Shown here: positions 15,336-19,115 of the stretch, one piece after another | How positions within the stretch are numbered: position 1 is the stretch's first letter | Layout: each line of letters starts with the position of its first letter | Notes under the pieces: model-generated | What the model saw: the letters and a program-made list of their open reading frames with translations, nothing else | The model's database searches: none | What the model was told of the DNA's origin: nothing | Position numbers and translations under genes: made by a program | IMG/VR virus record: IMGVR_UViG_3300047444_001104 | Span: 1-23,102 of that record | Direction: 5' to 3' (one strand) | Source of the DNA: a virus | Length of the DNA stretch: 23,102 nt

Positions 15336-15556
15336 GTCTGCACCTGCTCAAGCTGCTTAATGAGCCGGTCGAGGTACCAGCGCGCCTTCTTGAGGTCCTC
15401 AAGCACGTCGCCCTTGCGGCCGGCCCGCGAGATGTACTTCACGGCGTTGCCGAGGTGAAGGCCGAGTCCCCACGCCTCGATGACGTTGATCGCCTCGTAC
15501 GTCCCCGGGTGGTAGTGCGCCGGGTGGTTCACCGCATCGCTCTTGGCCATGGTCAC
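15332..15556 (-). CDS. DUF3310 family protein, 74 aa
   Basis: DUF3310 proteins are short, widespread phage proteins of unsettled function. The whole chain fits: AVNHPAHYHPGTYEAINVIE, then LGLHLGNAVKYISRAGRKG, then DVLEDLKKARWYLDRLIKQL. The conserved 'NHP.HY', 'GNA.KY..R.G.K' and 'DL.KA.WYL.R' motifs are all present. Two starts are possible: GTG 15556 in a GTGA overlap (GGAGG 4 nt away) or ATG 15550 (GGAGG 10 nt away). It follows the helicase loader, in a replication neighbourhood. Confidence 0.9.
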   Translation of the reverse strand: MTMAKSDAVNHPAHYHPGTYEAINVIEAWGLGLHLGNAVKYISRAGRKGDVLEDLKKARWYLDRLIKQLEQVQT

Positions 15557-16260
15557 CCGTCCTCCCCCGGCTCGCGCCCACGCAGCGATTCGTACTGTCC
15601 AAGCTCCGGGATGAATGCGCCGACCTTCATGCGATCGACGACTGGTGCCCCGTAACGGGTCGCGAAGCCGGCGCCGCGAAGGTTGGTGGACAACACCGTC
15701 GCCTTGCGTCCGTCCATTCGCCGCTGCAGCAAATCTGTCAGCGCCGCGATGGCTGGCCTTGACGCCTCATGTCCCGCGTCGTCGATGACAAGCAACCATG
15801 CGCGCGAACACTCCTCGTATTGGCGCTTGCCGTCATTGAACCAGCCTTGCAGCAGCGCGACGTCCTCGGCGTTGAGCCAGACAATCGGCTCCCAGCTTGA
15901 GCCACCGCCAGCGCGGGAATTCCATGGGTACTCGCGCGCGGCGAGGTATGCCGCCCATGCCGCCGCGGTGCTCTTGCCGAGCCCCGTCGGTCCCATCAGC
16001 GCCAGCATCGACCGCTCGCCTCGCATGCCGTCCCACCACGAGGCCGCTGCCTCAGCAGCTCGCGACGGCCTGAGCGTTTTCATCACGAGTGCCCGAACTG
16101 ACTGTAGCAAGCCGACCGGGGCGCCGGCCCGGCGCACCTTCGTCATCGCGGTGCCGGGGTCTACTGTGGGCTCCGGCTTGTATGGGCCGCCCGCCGCCGC
16201 CATCTCGGACTTCTCGGCAATGCGGCGAATCTTCTCAATCAGGTGCGGTGGCAGGCTCAT
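15553..16260 (-). CDS. DnaC/IstB-like helicase loader ATPase, 235 aa
   Basis: Loaders of this AAA+ group deliver the host DnaB helicase to a phage origin. Walker A GPTGLGKST is at residues 90-98, Walker B LLVIDDAG at about 156-163, a sensor-type LSTNL at 190-194, and RYGAPVVDRM (about 202-211) matches the arginine-bearing end motif of DnaC-type ATPases. The first ~60 residues are a helical adaptor region. ATG 16260 has GGAG seven nt upstream and overlaps the replication initiator stop as ATGA, the classic O-P-like pair. The neighbouring initiator with internal repeats suggests it acts there. Confidence 0.88.
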   Translation of the reverse strand: MSLPPHLIEKIRRIAEKSEMAAAGGPYKPEPTVDPGTAMTKVRRAGAPVGLLQSVRALVMKTLRPSRAAEAAASWWDGMRGERSMLALMGPTGLGKSTAAAWAAYLAAREYPWNSRAGGGSSWEPIVWLNAEDVALLQGWFNDGKRQYEECSRAWLLVIDDAGHEASRPAIAALTDLLQRRMDGRKATVLSTNLRGAGFATRYGAPVVDRMKVGAFIPELGQYESLRGREPGEDG

Positions 16261-17093
16261 GGCTTTTCTCCAAAGAGTTCGCGCGCGGTGTCGCCCTCGC
16301 GGTAGTTGCTCCAGTCGGTGTCAGCGGCGGTGGCCGCGCCCCTGGGCGGACCCGTCGATGCCGCGCGTTCGATGGCGAGTTCCGGCCAGACCTGCAGCAG
16401 CTTTAGAAACGTTGCACACTTCGTCTCGAACTGACTGGCGGACAGGCCCTTGCGCCAGCGCCGGTCGATCTCGTCGTCATCGCCCCTTCCGAGCAGCGTT
16501 TTCAGCGCGGCGACGTCTTGGTCCGTCGGGTCGAGCGGCTTGCCTACGAGGTCGTGGTAGCTTTTCTTGAGCCGTCCAATGAGCGGTCCAAGTCGAGGGT
16601 TAACCGCCCGCGGTTTTGGCGCGGGCCCTGTATTTCGCTTGTCGCTAGTCGCTAGTCGCTCGTCGCTAGTCGCTGAAAGCCTGGAGTCGAGCTGGAGAGG
16701 TGCTGGAGAGGTGCTGGAAGGCAGCTGGAGAGATGCCCCAGCATTCGGACCAGCAGGAGCAGCGCGGCCGCGCTTCAGGTTTCCGGCCGCAGCGGCCGCT
16801 TTCCCGCCCCTCTCGCGACCCTCTTGGATGCGCAGATAACGCTGTGCGCCACGCACCCGCCAGACGCTTGAGCCGATGGCCTCAAGGAAGCCGAAGTCGA
16901 CGAGAATGGCTCCGAGCTCGGAGCCGAAGAAGCCGCGCAGGTGGTTGGTGGTGACCTTGTCTGTCTTCTCGCGCCAGCACCACTCCCACATCTGCGTGAG
17001 ACCCCATCCAACGACCGCCTCCTGAATGCCGGCGCTCCGAGCCACCTTCGGCACCAACGGCAGGGCGTCCAACTCAAATGCAATATGGCTCAC
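16257..17093 (-). CDS. Replication initiator-like protein with repeat-rich linker, 278 aa
   Basis: The start is GTG 17093 with a strong GGAGGGGG upstream. The N-terminal ~95 residues resemble a winged-helix DNA-binding domain (LPLVPKVARSAGIQEAVVGW, LGAILVDFGFLEAIGSSVWR, RYLRIQEGRERGG). A Ser/Pro/Thr-rich linker (about residues 100-155) is encoded by two tandem-repeat arrays. The C-terminal ~110 residues (LGPLIGRLKKSYHDLVGKPL; TDQDVAALKTLLGR; FETKCATFLKLLQVWPEL) resemble the C-terminal part of phage replication proteins that recruit a helicase loader. The arrangement (DNA-binding domain, repeat-bearing linker, loader-binding domain, then a DnaC-like gene) parallels lambda O-P. Family assignment is by architecture, not by a firm motif. 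Confidence 0.75.
   Translation of the reverse strand: MSHIAFELDALPLVPKVARSAGIQEAVVGWGLTQMWEWCWREKTDKVTTNHLRGFFGSELGAILVDFGFLEAIGSSVWRVRGAQRYLRIQEGRERGGKAAAAAGNLKRGRAAPAGPNAGASLQLPSSTSPAPLQLDSRLSATSDERLATSDKRNTGPAPKPRAVNPRLGPLIGRLKKSYHDLVGKPLDPTDQDVAALKTLLGRGDDDEIDRRWRKGLSASQFETKCATFLKLLQVWPELAIERAASTGPPRGAATAADTDWSNYREGDTARELFGEKP
16641..16675. repeat. Five tandem 7-bp repeats (GTCGCTA), possible origin iterons
   Basis: Consecutive units on the plus strand are GTCGCTA, GTCGCTA, GTCGCTC, GTCGCTA and GTCGCTG. They lie in the linker-coding part of the replication initiator gene, five bases from the 11-bp array. A short T-rich patch (TATTTCGCTT) is directly on the left. Confidence 0.85.
16681..16735. 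repeat. Five tandem 11-bp repeats (CTGGAGAGGTG consensus), possible origin iterons
   Basis: Units on the plus strand are CTGGAGTCGAG, CTGGAGAGGTG (twice), CTGGAAGGCAG and CTGGAGAGATG. All begin CTGGA and keep an 11-bp period. 11 bp is about one helical turn, so bound proteins would lie on one DNA face, as in phage origins located inside the initiator gene. Confidence 0.85.
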
Positions 17094-17150
17094 GTTCCCC
17101 CTCCGGGGCTCACTGCGCGTTGAACCTCATGACGTCGAGAGTGGTGGAGC

Positions 17151-17456
17151 TCACGGCTGGCGCCTCCAGCTCTTCGCGACGCGCGCGTAGACCGCCCGGT
17201 GACCCGGCAGCATCAACGGGCGGTTCGTCTGTGGGTTGGTGATGCGACGCCGCCGGCGGCTCCGTACGGCGAACAGACCCAGGCCAGGCACGTACACGCG
17301 GCCAGTCGCCCAGGTCGCCTCTGCGAGCTGCGCGAAGAATGTCTCGAGTACCCGCCGAGTCGTGAGTTTCGTCAGCCTGACGTCGATGGCCACCTCGGTG
17401 ATGAGGTTCGTGAATGTGGGCCTGATGGGCGGCAACGGCGGGACGGACTCGGTCAC
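17151..17456 (-). CDS. HU/IHF family DNA-binding protein, 101 aa
   Basis: HU/IHF proteins bend DNA and help initiation, integration or packaging. The family pattern is visible: a helical N-terminus (FTNLITEVAIDVRLTKLTTR, RVLETFFAQLAEATWATG), then RVYVPGLGLFAVRSRRRRR (matching 'G.F.v..r.ar') and NPQTNRPLMLPGHRAVYA (matching 'NP.Tg..i.ip'), and a closing VAKSWRR. The size is normal, slightly extended at the N-terminus (Pro-rich). The GTG start sits in a GTGA overlap with the zinc-ribbon gene. Beside attP and the replication gene, it could serve as a phage-encoded IHF/HU for integration or origin architecture, by inference. Confidence 0.85.
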   Translation of the reverse strand: MTESVPPLPPIRPTFTNLITEVAIDVRLTKLTTRRVLETFFAQLAEATWATGRVYVPGLGLFAVRSRRRRRITNPQTNRPLMLPGHRAVYARVAKSWRRQP

Positions 17457-17665
17457 AGTTCACCCCGCTCGTGCGCTTCCCACGCGAGCTGCGCGGCCGT
17501 GGCCTGCGTCACCTCTGCAAGGGTGCCCACCCAGCCCTTGCCGCACGCCGGACACACAAGCCTGTCACCGTCGTTCGCGCGATGGTTCCAGTCGGCCTTG
17601 GAGCGGGGGAGGCCTGTCGCCGAGCCGCAGTGCGGACACCTCGGGCAGTTGTGCCAGGGTTTCAT
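17453..17665 (-). CDS. Zinc-ribbon protein, 70 aa
   Basis: ATG 17665 overlaps the previous stop as ATGA; a longer upstream frame is rejected because it has shadow composition. The first residues MKPWHNCPRCPHCG carry C7, C10 and C13, and a second pair lies in LVCPACGKGW (C38, C41), forming a likely Cys4 zinc ribbon. A helical C-terminus follows (TQATAAQLAWEAHERGEL). Function unknown; similar small ribbons bind nucleic acid or partner proteins. Confidence 0.75.
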   Translation of the reverse strand: MKPWHNCPRCPHCGSATGLPRSKADWNHRANDGDRLVCPACGKGWVGTLAEVTQATAAQLAWEAHERGEL

Positions 17666-18039
17666 GCCGCCCTCGCCCTGGATCGGCCCGTCTTGTCGAG
17701 CGCGCGCAGAGTCGCCATCCGAAGCGCGTGCTCGGCGCACCGCAGCGCCGCCTTCGCGGTCTCGATGAAGCGCACGACGTCGGGGTTGCGCCCGTAGCGG
17801 ATGTCGGCTTTGCTGCTGGAGCCCATCGCCCGGCGAACGTCGGCGAGCGCAAGCTTCAGCGAGTAGCGACGGGCCGCACGACCCTTCGGCGTGGCGACTC
17901 GGCGTTGACCGCTACTGTCTTCTGACGTCGCTTGCTGTCGCGGCTCTTCCTCGGTAGGGCAAGGGAATCGAACCCTCCCCACCCTTCTCGCGAAGGGTGA
18001 CACGGGTTTTGAAGGCCCGTGCAATGTAACGTCCGTCAT
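17662..18039 (-). CDS. Basic protein whose 5' coding part overlaps the tRNA-Sec attP, 125 aa
   Basis: ATG 18039 has GAGG seven nt upstream and lies only 14 bp from the divergent integrase start. Residues about 7-29 (GPSKPVSPFARRVGRVRFPC) are simply a translation of the tRNA-Sec 3' fragment. The rest is basic and helical (KLALADVRRAMGSSSKADIR, VVRFIETAKAALRCAEHALR). No family was recognised. If the recombination crossover lies in the tRNA segment, integration would separate the start codon from the body. It may therefore be expressed only from the unintegrated form, or a shorter product may be used from an internal ATG (MGSSSKADIR). It heads the long leftward unit. Confidence 0.55.
   Translation of the reverse strand: MTDVTLHGPSKPVSPFARRVGRVRFPCPTEEEPRQQATSEDSSGQRRVATPKGRAARRYSLKLALADVRRAMGSSSKADIRYGRNPDVVRFIETAKAALRCAEHALRMATLRALDKTGRSRARAA
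17953..18021 (-). other. attP candidate: 3' part of a tRNA-Sec (selC) gene
   Basis: On the minus strand the segment reads CACGGG-CCTTCAAAA-CCCGTG (anticodon arm, anticodon TCA at 18012-18010 preceded by T33), then a long variable arm CACCCTTC-GCGA-GAAGGGTG, then a T arm AGGG-TTCGATT-CCCT and an acceptor strand GCCCTACC. UCA anticodon plus a long variable arm defines tRNA-Sec. The matching 5' acceptor strand (GGTAGGGC) and D arm are absent in the preceding 45 bases, so the gene is incomplete. A 3'-tRNA fragment directly upstream of an integrase is the signature of a phage attachment site. The anticodon stem has one C-A mismatch on the 5' side, consistent with the homology ending near the anticodon loop. 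The next downstream genes are phage genes, indicating attP rather than attL or attR. Confidence 0.85.
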
Positions 18040-18053
18040 AGGAGAACCTCGCC

Positions 18054-19115
18054 GTGGAAAGAGCCCGAGTCGACGCCGTGGAGACTGCTAGGCCGCACTG
18101 GTTGGGCGGCTTCATCCGGAAGACGAAGGCGGGGCGACCCGTCTACGTCATTGAGAAACGCATCCGCGGCGCGCTCTTCAAGGTGAGCACGCGATGCCAC
18201 ACCGAAGACGCCGCGATGCGCGAGCTGCGGAAGTTTGAGGCCGACCCCGGAGCCTACGTCCCCGGTGGCGTCGAGCGGCTGAAGATGACCGTGGACCTGA
18301 TTCTCGACTACCGCACTTGGCAACTCGAGGAGCGGGGCAACACGCATGAGTGGGCGCACACATCGGCCAACCTGCTCATGGACTGGCTCGAGTCCTTCGA
18401 GAATCTGGACCTGCGCCGCGTCAACTCCATCACCGTGAAAGACACCCTCGCCCGCTGGACGACGAGCCGGCCCGCGCGCATCACCGCCCTGAAGGGCTTC
18501 TTCACCTGGCTGCGCAAAGAGCGCGGCGTGCTGAAGCATCATGAAGACCCGATGCCTGACGTGCGCATGCCCCAACGGAAGTCCGCAAAGGAGACGAGCG
18601 GACCCCGCGACGTGCCATTCAAGACGGCGCTCGCCGTCTACAAGCACCTCCGCGCGGACGTGGTCGACATACTGCAGCTCTTGGCGGGGACGGGCTGGCA
18701 TTTGTCCGAGGCGATTCGCTTCGCCAGCGGCGGGGAGGTTCGGAGGGACCCCACGCGCAAGCACAAGGTCGTACTCGTCACCTTCCACAAGCGGAAGGAG
18801 TGGGCCGTGTCGGGCCTCAACCGCCCCGAACACATCGCCGCCGCGCGACGCATTCGAGAGCAGGGTTGGATGCTGAGCCGCGGCCGACTCGCACAGCTGA
18901 TGCGACTTGCCAACGACGCTGCGGGCGTGCCTGAGGACGAGCGCCTCCACCTCGGCGACATGCGGCACACCGTCGGCACGTGGGCCATCGAGGACGGGCA
19001 GGACATTCGCGAAGTCGCCCGCGCCTTCAACCACGAGTCCGAGAAGATGCTGCGCAAGCACTACGTCCGGCACAGTGTGCCGCGCGGCACCATCAAGACT
19101 CGTGTGTTGAAGTAG
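18054..19115 (+). CDS. int: Tyrosine recombinase integrase with unusual active site, 353 aa
   Basis: Int recombines attP with the host attB. The GTG start has AGGAG nine nt upstream, shared with the divergent gene's leader. Domains: an N-terminal arm/AP2-like part (about 1-70: WLGGFIRKTKAGRPVYVIEK), a core-binding helical domain (about 76-165: YRTWQLEERGNTHEWAHTS; ITALKGFFTWLRKERG) and a catalytic domain (about 185-353). Catalytic features: box I reads AGTGWHLSEAIRF, with His216 where an Arg is expected; a Lys in TFHKRKEWAV; box II LGDMRHTVGTW, with Gly301 instead of His in HxxR but Arg304 kept; AFNHESEKMLRKHYVRH supplies His327 and the nucleophile Tyr337. The frame is intact and full length. 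The arrangement int-attP-replication genes supports site-specific integration at selC. Confidence 0.9.
   Translation: MERARVDAVETARPHWLGGFIRKTKAGRPVYVIEKRIRGALFKVSTRCHTEDAAMRELRKFEADPGAYVPGGVERLKMTVDLILDYRTWQLEERGNTHEWAHTSANLLMDWLESFENLDLRRVNSITVKDTLARWTTSRPARITALKGFFTWLRKERGVLKHHEDPMPDVRMPQRKSAKETSGPRDVPFKTALAVYKHLRADVVDILQLLAGTGWHLSEAIRFASGGEVRRDPTRKHKVVLVTFHKRKEWAVSGLNRPEHIAAARRIREQGWMLSRGRLAQLMRLANDAAGVPEDERLHLGDMRHTVGTWAIEDGQDIREVARAFNHESEKMLRKHYVRHSVPRGTIKTRVLK

What the first reader, a model, noticed from the sequence alone, without database searches (positions are those of the whole stretch)
17953..18021. attP built from the 3' part of a selenocysteine tRNA gene (selC)
The minus strand shows a UCA-anticodon arm, a long variable arm, T arm and 3' acceptor strand, but no 5' acceptor strand or D arm. 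A tRNA 3' fragment beside an integrase is a standard attachment site. selC is known as an island target in enterobacteria; a siphovirus-like phage with this attP in a GC-rich, possibly myxobacterial setting would be notable. It implies the host makes selenoproteins.
Basis: partly seen in the sequence, partly recalled or inferred. Interest (0 to 1): 0.8.

Follow-up and report, generated by a model that had tools for sequence, protein, structure and literature searches.

The report
Phage attachment site from selC tRNA
A bacterial virus carries the tail half of the selenocysteine tRNA gene next to its integration enzyme, so that it can insert into that gene without destroying it; this is a known trick at a rarely reported target, but the enzyme belongs to a group that lacks two of the usual catalytic amino acids.

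Summary
On the minus strand, 18014-17952 is the 3' half of a tRNA-Sec gene (anticodon loop to discriminator base); the 5' acceptor strand and D arm are missing. Joined in silico to real selC 5' halves it is called a complete tRNA-Sec (4 of 4 constructs; 0 of 200 with the half shuffled). A near-identical longer record closes to a 41,506-bp circle with one core and phage genes on both sides, so this is attP, not a prophage junction. Two other phages, found by DNA pattern alone, carry the same kind of core beside an integrase 36-41% identical to this one; one has no other DNA match to the window (E up to 1e-5). The attP reading stands. The host was not found: no selC with this 3' end in a one-genome-per-species collection; nothing tested points to myxobacteria. 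Integration into selC is known (Burkholderia phage PhiE067, enterobacterial islands). Less expected is the integrase: it and 13 relatives have His in place of the first catalytic Arg and Gly in place of the His of HxxR, while Lys, second Arg, last His and Tyr are kept (11 of 11 aligned). Relatives sit beside selC, tRNA-Glu, tRNA-Arg(CCT) or tRNA-Leu(TAA) fragments.

The parts
17952..18014 (-). attP core: 3' half of a tRNA-Sec gene, anticodon loop (CTTCAAA) to discriminator G
   Evidence: same kind of core in L087 and L072
18010..18012 (-). UCA anticodon; the strand exchange is inferred to fall in or beside this loop
   Evidence: sequence; C31.A39 mismatch; anticodon-loop att sites are a described class (PMC4383910, passages)
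18015..18019 (-). phage version of the 5' strand of the anticodon stem, ending in the C31 that mismatches A39
18054..19115 (+). tyrosine integrase (353 aa), divergent from the core; start codon may be 18054 or a GTG shortly after
18699..18701 (+). His216 at the place of the first catalytic Arg
18954..18956 (+). Gly301 at the place of the His of HxxR
18717..18719 (+). Arg222, invariant in the 11-member alignment; candidate stand-in for the missing Arg (inference)
18849..18851 (+). Arg266, invariant in the 11-member alignment; second candidate stand-in (inference)
17662..18039 (-). open frame of 125 aa that starts beside the integrase, reads through the core and ends in an ATGA overlap with the next frame; coding across the core is uncertain
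15553..17740 (-). leftward genes after the core: zinc-ribbon protein (sub-threshold Pfam match), a protein with a phrog_8130 match, DnaC-like helicase loader

Best explanation
This is the attP of a temperate phage. The divergent tyrosine integrase recombines it with selC of an unidentified host, by strand exchange in or next to the anticodon loop. After integration the host's 5' half of selC is joined to the phage's 3' half, so selC stays intact, and the displaced host 3' half lies at the integrase end of the prophage. Shown: the half gene, the circular genome with a single internal core, the integrase beside it, and the same core-integrase pair in two other phages. Inferred: the crossover position, the host, the layout of the prophage and that the enzyme is active. 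The enzyme belongs to a group of 14 with a changed active site (His-Lys-Gly-Arg-His plus Tyr instead of Arg-Lys-His-Arg-His plus Tyr); my guess is that another conserved arginine (222 or 266) does the work of the missing one.
For: tRNA-Sec match; chimeras with real selC 5' halves are called tRNA-SeC, 4 of 4. G001 matches the window over all 23,102 bases with 2 mismatches, has an exact 127-bp terminal repeat and a single core, with phage genes on both sides of it. Core pattern in viral contigs: 3 contigs; the profile of those three integrases: the same 3 contigs (its peptide patterns are narrow, and later scans found more distant relatives with other cores). G302 has one DNA match to the window at E up to 1e-5: 86 columns at window 17939-18020. 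C31.A39 in 3 of 3 of these phages; the 7 genome loci with A39 (two from one strain) all have T31. Other selC half sites: 23 of 26 contigs carry PF00589; in the 15 whose frame could be read in the held DNA (window phage and L087 included) it lies within 300 nt of the core. Two relatives, L148 and L160, have tandem repeats on both sides of their cores.
Against: No host selC with this 3' end was found; the selC genes that the looser pattern found (Gemmata, Solirubrobacter) match the core poorly and are not its source. No integrase relative in 294 sampled Planctomycetota or 396 sampled Actinobacteriota genomes, no T-arm/acceptor match in 296 Actinobacteriota genomes. No integrated copy was seen. 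Clear arm-type repeats were not resolved around the window's own core. In 8 of the 23 half-site contigs with PF00589 the frame could not be read, and in 6 of these the match lies near the other end of the contig from the core. The altered catalytic residues could mean an inactive enzyme.
Confidence: 0.93

Rival explanations
1. The core is an attP but the neighbouring protein is no longer a recombinase: a tyrosine-recombinase fold turned regulator (as in SPbeta MrpR/YopR), and another enzyme recombines the site.
For: Two catalytic residues are replaced. The regulators MrpR, YopR and SroF appear among structural matches.
Against: Lys246, Arg304, His327 and Tyr337 are invariant in 11 of 11. The gene sits beside a tRNA-type core in all three selC phages, and relatives sit beside fragments of three other tRNA genes. 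PF00589 finds one match in each of G001, G302 and G303, that of G302 below the cut-off.
Confidence: 0.08
2. The half gene is a captured or decaying tRNA gene, without an att role.
For: Some phage contigs carry whole tRNA-Sec genes in tRNA arrays.
Against: The same 3' half from the anticodon loop, divergent from and next to a homologous integrase, in three phages whose DNA is otherwise largely unlike; the half is structurally sound.
Confidence: 0.03
3. The window shows a prophage end with host DNA to the left of 17953, not attP.
For: The window alone has no 5' half of selC.
Against: Left of the core lie a DnaC-like loader, terminase and a minor tail match, and the longer record is a closed circle.
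Confidence: 0.02
4. attP also lies inside the start of the first leftward gene, so integration cuts that gene off from its own start signals: an integration-dependent switch (compatible with the best explanation).
For: In the four divergent members (window, L087, L072, L160) an ATG with a GAGG-, AGGAGG- or AAGG-type site opens a frame that runs through the core and ends in an ATGA. Among the 23 other selC half sites 3 show ATG plus such a site. In the window no start codon lies in frame between residues 20 and 72.
Against: Third-position GC is not coding-like for the first 50 codons in all four, and in L072 nowhere in its 67 codons. Downstream parts are of different kinds. GTG starts after the core are possible in L087 (78) and L160 (35). 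The comparison was made after seeing the pattern.
Confidence: 0.3

Closest known systems
Burkholderia phage PhiE067 (PMC7266877, passages read)
   Same: temperate phage in the 3' end of selC, integrase gene adjacent; the paper calls selC only rarely identified as a phage integration site
   Different: 19-bp attP against a 63-base tRNA half here; myovirus, other host; its integrase was not compared
Enterobacterial selC elements (phage phiR73 recalled; islands as mentioned in PMC7266877)
   Same: selC as integration target
   Different: no sequence comparison made; known hosts are enterobacteria
tDNA islands with anticodon-centred attP, class A of Islander (PMC4383910, passages read)
   Same: 3' tRNA fragment beside a tyrosine integrase; 2083 islands of this class are counted there
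   Different: circular phage form seen here, integrated form not seen; tRNA-Sec
IntCTnDOT and IntDes integrase subgroups (PMC8138268, passages read)
   Same: first catalytic Arg absent or shifted; in CTnDOT integrase another Arg takes over (Kim et al. 2010, as cited there, not read); IntDes also lacks the first His
   Different: here the Arg is His and the first His is Gly, in 14 of 14; IntDes has Tyr there; their sequences were not compared with ours
Myxococcus phage Mx8 (NC_003085; PMC6070905, passages read)
   Same: temperate phage with a tyrosine integrase
   Different: attP lies inside int; Mx8 Int is not recognised by the family profile

Membership tests
tRNA-gene attP, anticodon-loop class | fragment of a tRNA gene from the anticodon loop to the 3' end | tested here: met
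tRNA-gene attP, anticodon-loop class | integrase gene next to it | tested here: met
   18054-19115
tRNA-gene attP, anticodon-loop class | matching complete tRNA gene in a host, rebuilt on integration | tested here: inconclusive
   no host selC with this 3' end; rebuilding shown only with other bacteria's 5' halves in silico
tRNA-gene attP, anticodon-loop class | phage genes on both sides in the circular form | tested here: met
Tyrosine recombinases | fold and PF00589 match | tested here: met
Tyrosine recombinases | Tyr nucleophile, second Arg, last His, Lys | tested here: met
   Y337, R304, H327, K246 invariant in 11 of 11
Canonical RKHRH tyrosine integrases | first catalytic Arg | tested here: not met
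   His in 14 of 14; aligns with the Arg of XerD
Canonical RKHRH tyrosine integrases | His of HxxR | tested here: not met
   Gly in 14 of 14
IntCTnDOT subgroup | alternative Arg replacing the first Arg in the active site | tested here: inconclusive
   R222 and R266 are invariant in 11 of 11; no coordinates or assay to place them
IntDes subgroup | Tyr in place of the first His | tested here: not met
   Gly at that place; IntDes sequences themselves were not compared
Mx8-type integrases | attP within the int coding sequence | tested here: not met
   39 bases lie between the core and the int start codon at 18054; profile against Mx8 Int: -1.7 bits

The most novel reading that the evidence does not exclude
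A group of phage integrases, 14 seen here, works without the first catalytic arginine and without the His of HxxR (His and Gly instead, in 14 of 14), and has spread over four kinds of tRNA target including selC. It would be a further rewiring of the tyrosine-recombinase active site, with Arg222 or Arg266 as the relocated arginine or His216 itself in the role.
Probability: 0.6. Interest if true: 0.6.

Novelty: new variant of a known kind. Interest (0 to 1): 0.48.

Why it matters
It adds a clear phage attP at selC, a target reported for few phages, and suggests that the host of this uncultured phage has a selC gene. The integrase group makes a question testable: how can a tyrosine recombinase cut DNA without the arginine that nearly all others keep? 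And the homologous core-integrase pair in phages that are otherwise very different suggests a module, integrase plus its tRNA half, that moves as a unit.

Tried and rejected
Rejected: tRNA-Ser or tRNA-Leu origin. tRNA-Sec is the tRNA model kept (overlapping matches of one clan are reduced to the best, so weaker tRNA matches would not show), and the anticodon is UCA. Rejected: prophage junction (circular genome). Rejected: kinship with Mx8 integrase. Found nothing: integrases in the phage and plasmid collections (one search gave one weak local hit, 18% of the query, to a Bordetella phage integrase); core in phages (best E 0.7, at most 33% of the query covered); host selC with this 3' end; samples of Actinobacteriota and Planctomycetota (the tool warns that an empty answer without a known positive shows nothing). 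Promoter and terminator scans around the core gave 0 and 0. Arm repeats of the window were not resolved (one search gave 7 weak matches against a shuffled mean of 0.4, which I did not pursue; L087 gave 12 and L072 0 by the same script). A tblastx listed many short weak pieces between G001 and G302 or G303; the output was cut and I did not analyse it. Literature: 2 papers, one opened; no paper; 1 paper, passages; listings only; listings; passages of PMC6070905, PMC4383910 and PMC8138268 opened. I did not find this integrase group described in these searches; the library lacks most subscription journals.

Caveats on counts. The 26 half sites were picked by me from the printout: matches at contig ends and non-tRNA matches were dropped; L022, L023 and L036 were kept although ARAGORN calls a tRNA-SeC there; loci L095-L133 were not run through ARAGORN. 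Of one search's 16 loci, L172 and L173 (25 and 22% identity) have canonical residues and were not counted in the group; 11 were contigs already known. One of its two peptide patterns contains the Gly, and one pattern contains the His, so those scans favour them; the patterns contain neither. L171's integrase frame is broken; its motifs were read in two frames and it has His, not Arg, at place 222. tRNA-Arg(CCT), tRNA-Glu(TTC) and tRNA-Leu(TAA) are my reading of printed sequence; the Rfam tRNA model matched 4 of 8 of L144-L151's records, none over the cut-off, and ARAGORN none of 13.

Full report
Observation. The minus strand from 18014 to 17952 reads as the 3' half of a tRNA-Sec gene: anticodon loop CTTCAAA, 3' anticodon strand, a 7-bp variable arm, a 5-bp T stem, the 8-base 3' acceptor strand and a discriminator G, without CCA. 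Rfam's tRNA-Sec model gives 36.8 bits, E 7.2e-6 against all families and 9.7e-8 for that family over the window, below the gathering score of 47. ARAGORN and the gathering scan find nothing. Placed behind the 5' halves of real selC genes from Gemmata and Solirubrobacter, with their own or a matched acceptor strand, the phage half is called tRNA-SeC in 4 of 4 constructs, against 0 of 200 with the half shuffled.

Why attP. A longer record, G001 (IMGVR_UViG_3300036401_000599), matches all 23,102 bases of the window with 2 mismatches. Its ends repeat 127 bases exactly, so it closes to 41,506 bp. It holds the core once. Left of the core in the window are a weak zinc-ribbon match, a DnaC-like loader, terminase and a minor tail match; to the other side, beyond the integrase, G001 carries a Mu-like protease and a major head protein. 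The core is therefore inside phage DNA.

Support from other phages. Only afterwards did tblastn show that both carry an integrase 41 and 36% identical to the window's, divergent from and next to the core. A stricter core pattern finds three contigs in the collection, and the profile of the three integrases, with narrow peptide patterns, finds the same three. L087's record G302 has one DNA match to the window at E up to 1e-5, the core region (77.9% over 86 columns), and no match at E up to 1e-3 for nine other window proteins; G303 shares terminase (41%), a DnaC-like protein (31%) and a terminase-region DNA match. A tblastx also listed many short weak pieces, not analysed. G303 is closed by a 127-bp repeat too and has one core.

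Crossover. All three phages have C31 opposite A39. The seven genome loci with A39 (two from one strain) have T31; over the survey the pair is intact in 65 of 66 full genes but in 19 of 26 half sites. The mismatch is harmless if position 31 comes from the host after integration, which places the exchange at or 3' of the anticodon loop (inference). This is the anticodon-centred class of the Islander database (PMC4383910, passages).

Wider survey. Of 26 contigs that I chose as selC half sites, 23 have a PF00589 match, 21 of 26 over the cut-off. In the 15 whose integrase frame could be read in the held DNA it lies within 300 nt of the core; in the other 8 with a match the frame was not held, and in 6 of these the match is near the opposite end of the contig, close only if the contig is circular. 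The hosts of these contigs are unknown to me. A proven phage case outside enterobacteria is PhiE067 of Burkholderia (PMC7266877, passages).

The integrase. Aligned with XerD, His216 takes the place of the first catalytic Arg and Gly301 that of the His of HxxR. Scans extended the family to 14 contigs. His and Gly are present in 14 of 14 (11; L160 and L170; L171, a broken gene), while Lys246, Arg304, His327 and Tyr337 are invariant in the 11 aligned. Among 13 other selC half-site contigs with a readable frame, 10 print a TGxR- or SGxR-type box with Arg and 10 the usual HxxR; L023, L051 and the fragment L100 print no such Arg box. The model from 11 sequences (pLDDT 81) has an N-terminal three-strand and helix domain, as in arm-binding domains. 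The earlier 3-sequence model (pLDDT 68) matches tyrosine recombinases by Foldseek (best E 2.9e-5, TM about 0.3) and lambda integrase and XerA at Z 10.6-10.9 over 185-221 residues with rmsd 6.6-11.1 A, 3.5 A over 136 residues of the lambda catalytic core. Precedents for a missing first Arg are the IntCTnDOT and IntDes subgroups (PMC8138268, passages).

Targets of relatives. By my reading of the sequence beside the integrase, L146, L147, L148 and L171 have a tRNA-Arg(CCT) 3' half, L145 a tRNA-Arg(CCT) 5' half, L160 a tRNA-Glu(TTC) 3' half divergent as in the window, and L170 a tRNA-Leu(TAA) 3' half. The loci of L144 and L149-L151 begin at the integrase and show none. L148 and L160 have tandem repeats on both sides of the core, as arm sites would.

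A frame across the core. In the window, L087, L072 and L160 an ATG with a plausible ribosome site opens a frame through the core that ends in ATGA; 3 of the other 23 half sites show ATG plus such a site. Third-position GC is not coding-like until about codon 50, and in L072 not at all. I keep this as a possibility, not a result.

What is not known. The host was not found, and the selC genes of Gemmata and Solirubrobacter found with a looser pattern are poor matches to the core. No integrated copy was seen. Myxobacterial origin is neither supported nor excluded. Integrase activity is inferred from conservation and context.

Noticed in passing
L160:439-1407 (minus): The frame that crosses the tRNA-Glu core continues into an HNH_3 endonuclease domain (E 2.1e-14).
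   Followed up: partly
L135:1637-2398 (minus), contig of L087: The frame that crosses the selC core holds a weak nucleoside 2-deoxyribosyltransferase-like match (E 0.015, below cut-off).
   Followed up: partly
L048: 9.8-kb contig with a full selC at one end and a matching selC 3' half at the other: looks like a small integrated element bounded by its two junctions.
   Followed up: no
L171:1414-2494: Integrase of the same group with its reading frame broken; motifs lie in two frames.
   Followed up: partly
L025, L035, L053, L060, L067, L076: Phage contigs carry whole tRNA-Sec genes among 13-24 tRNA and tmRNA genes: cargo rather than att sites.
   Followed up: no
L145, about 2848-2899: A tRNA-Arg(CCT) 5' half, not 3' half, lies before the integrase.
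   Followed up: no
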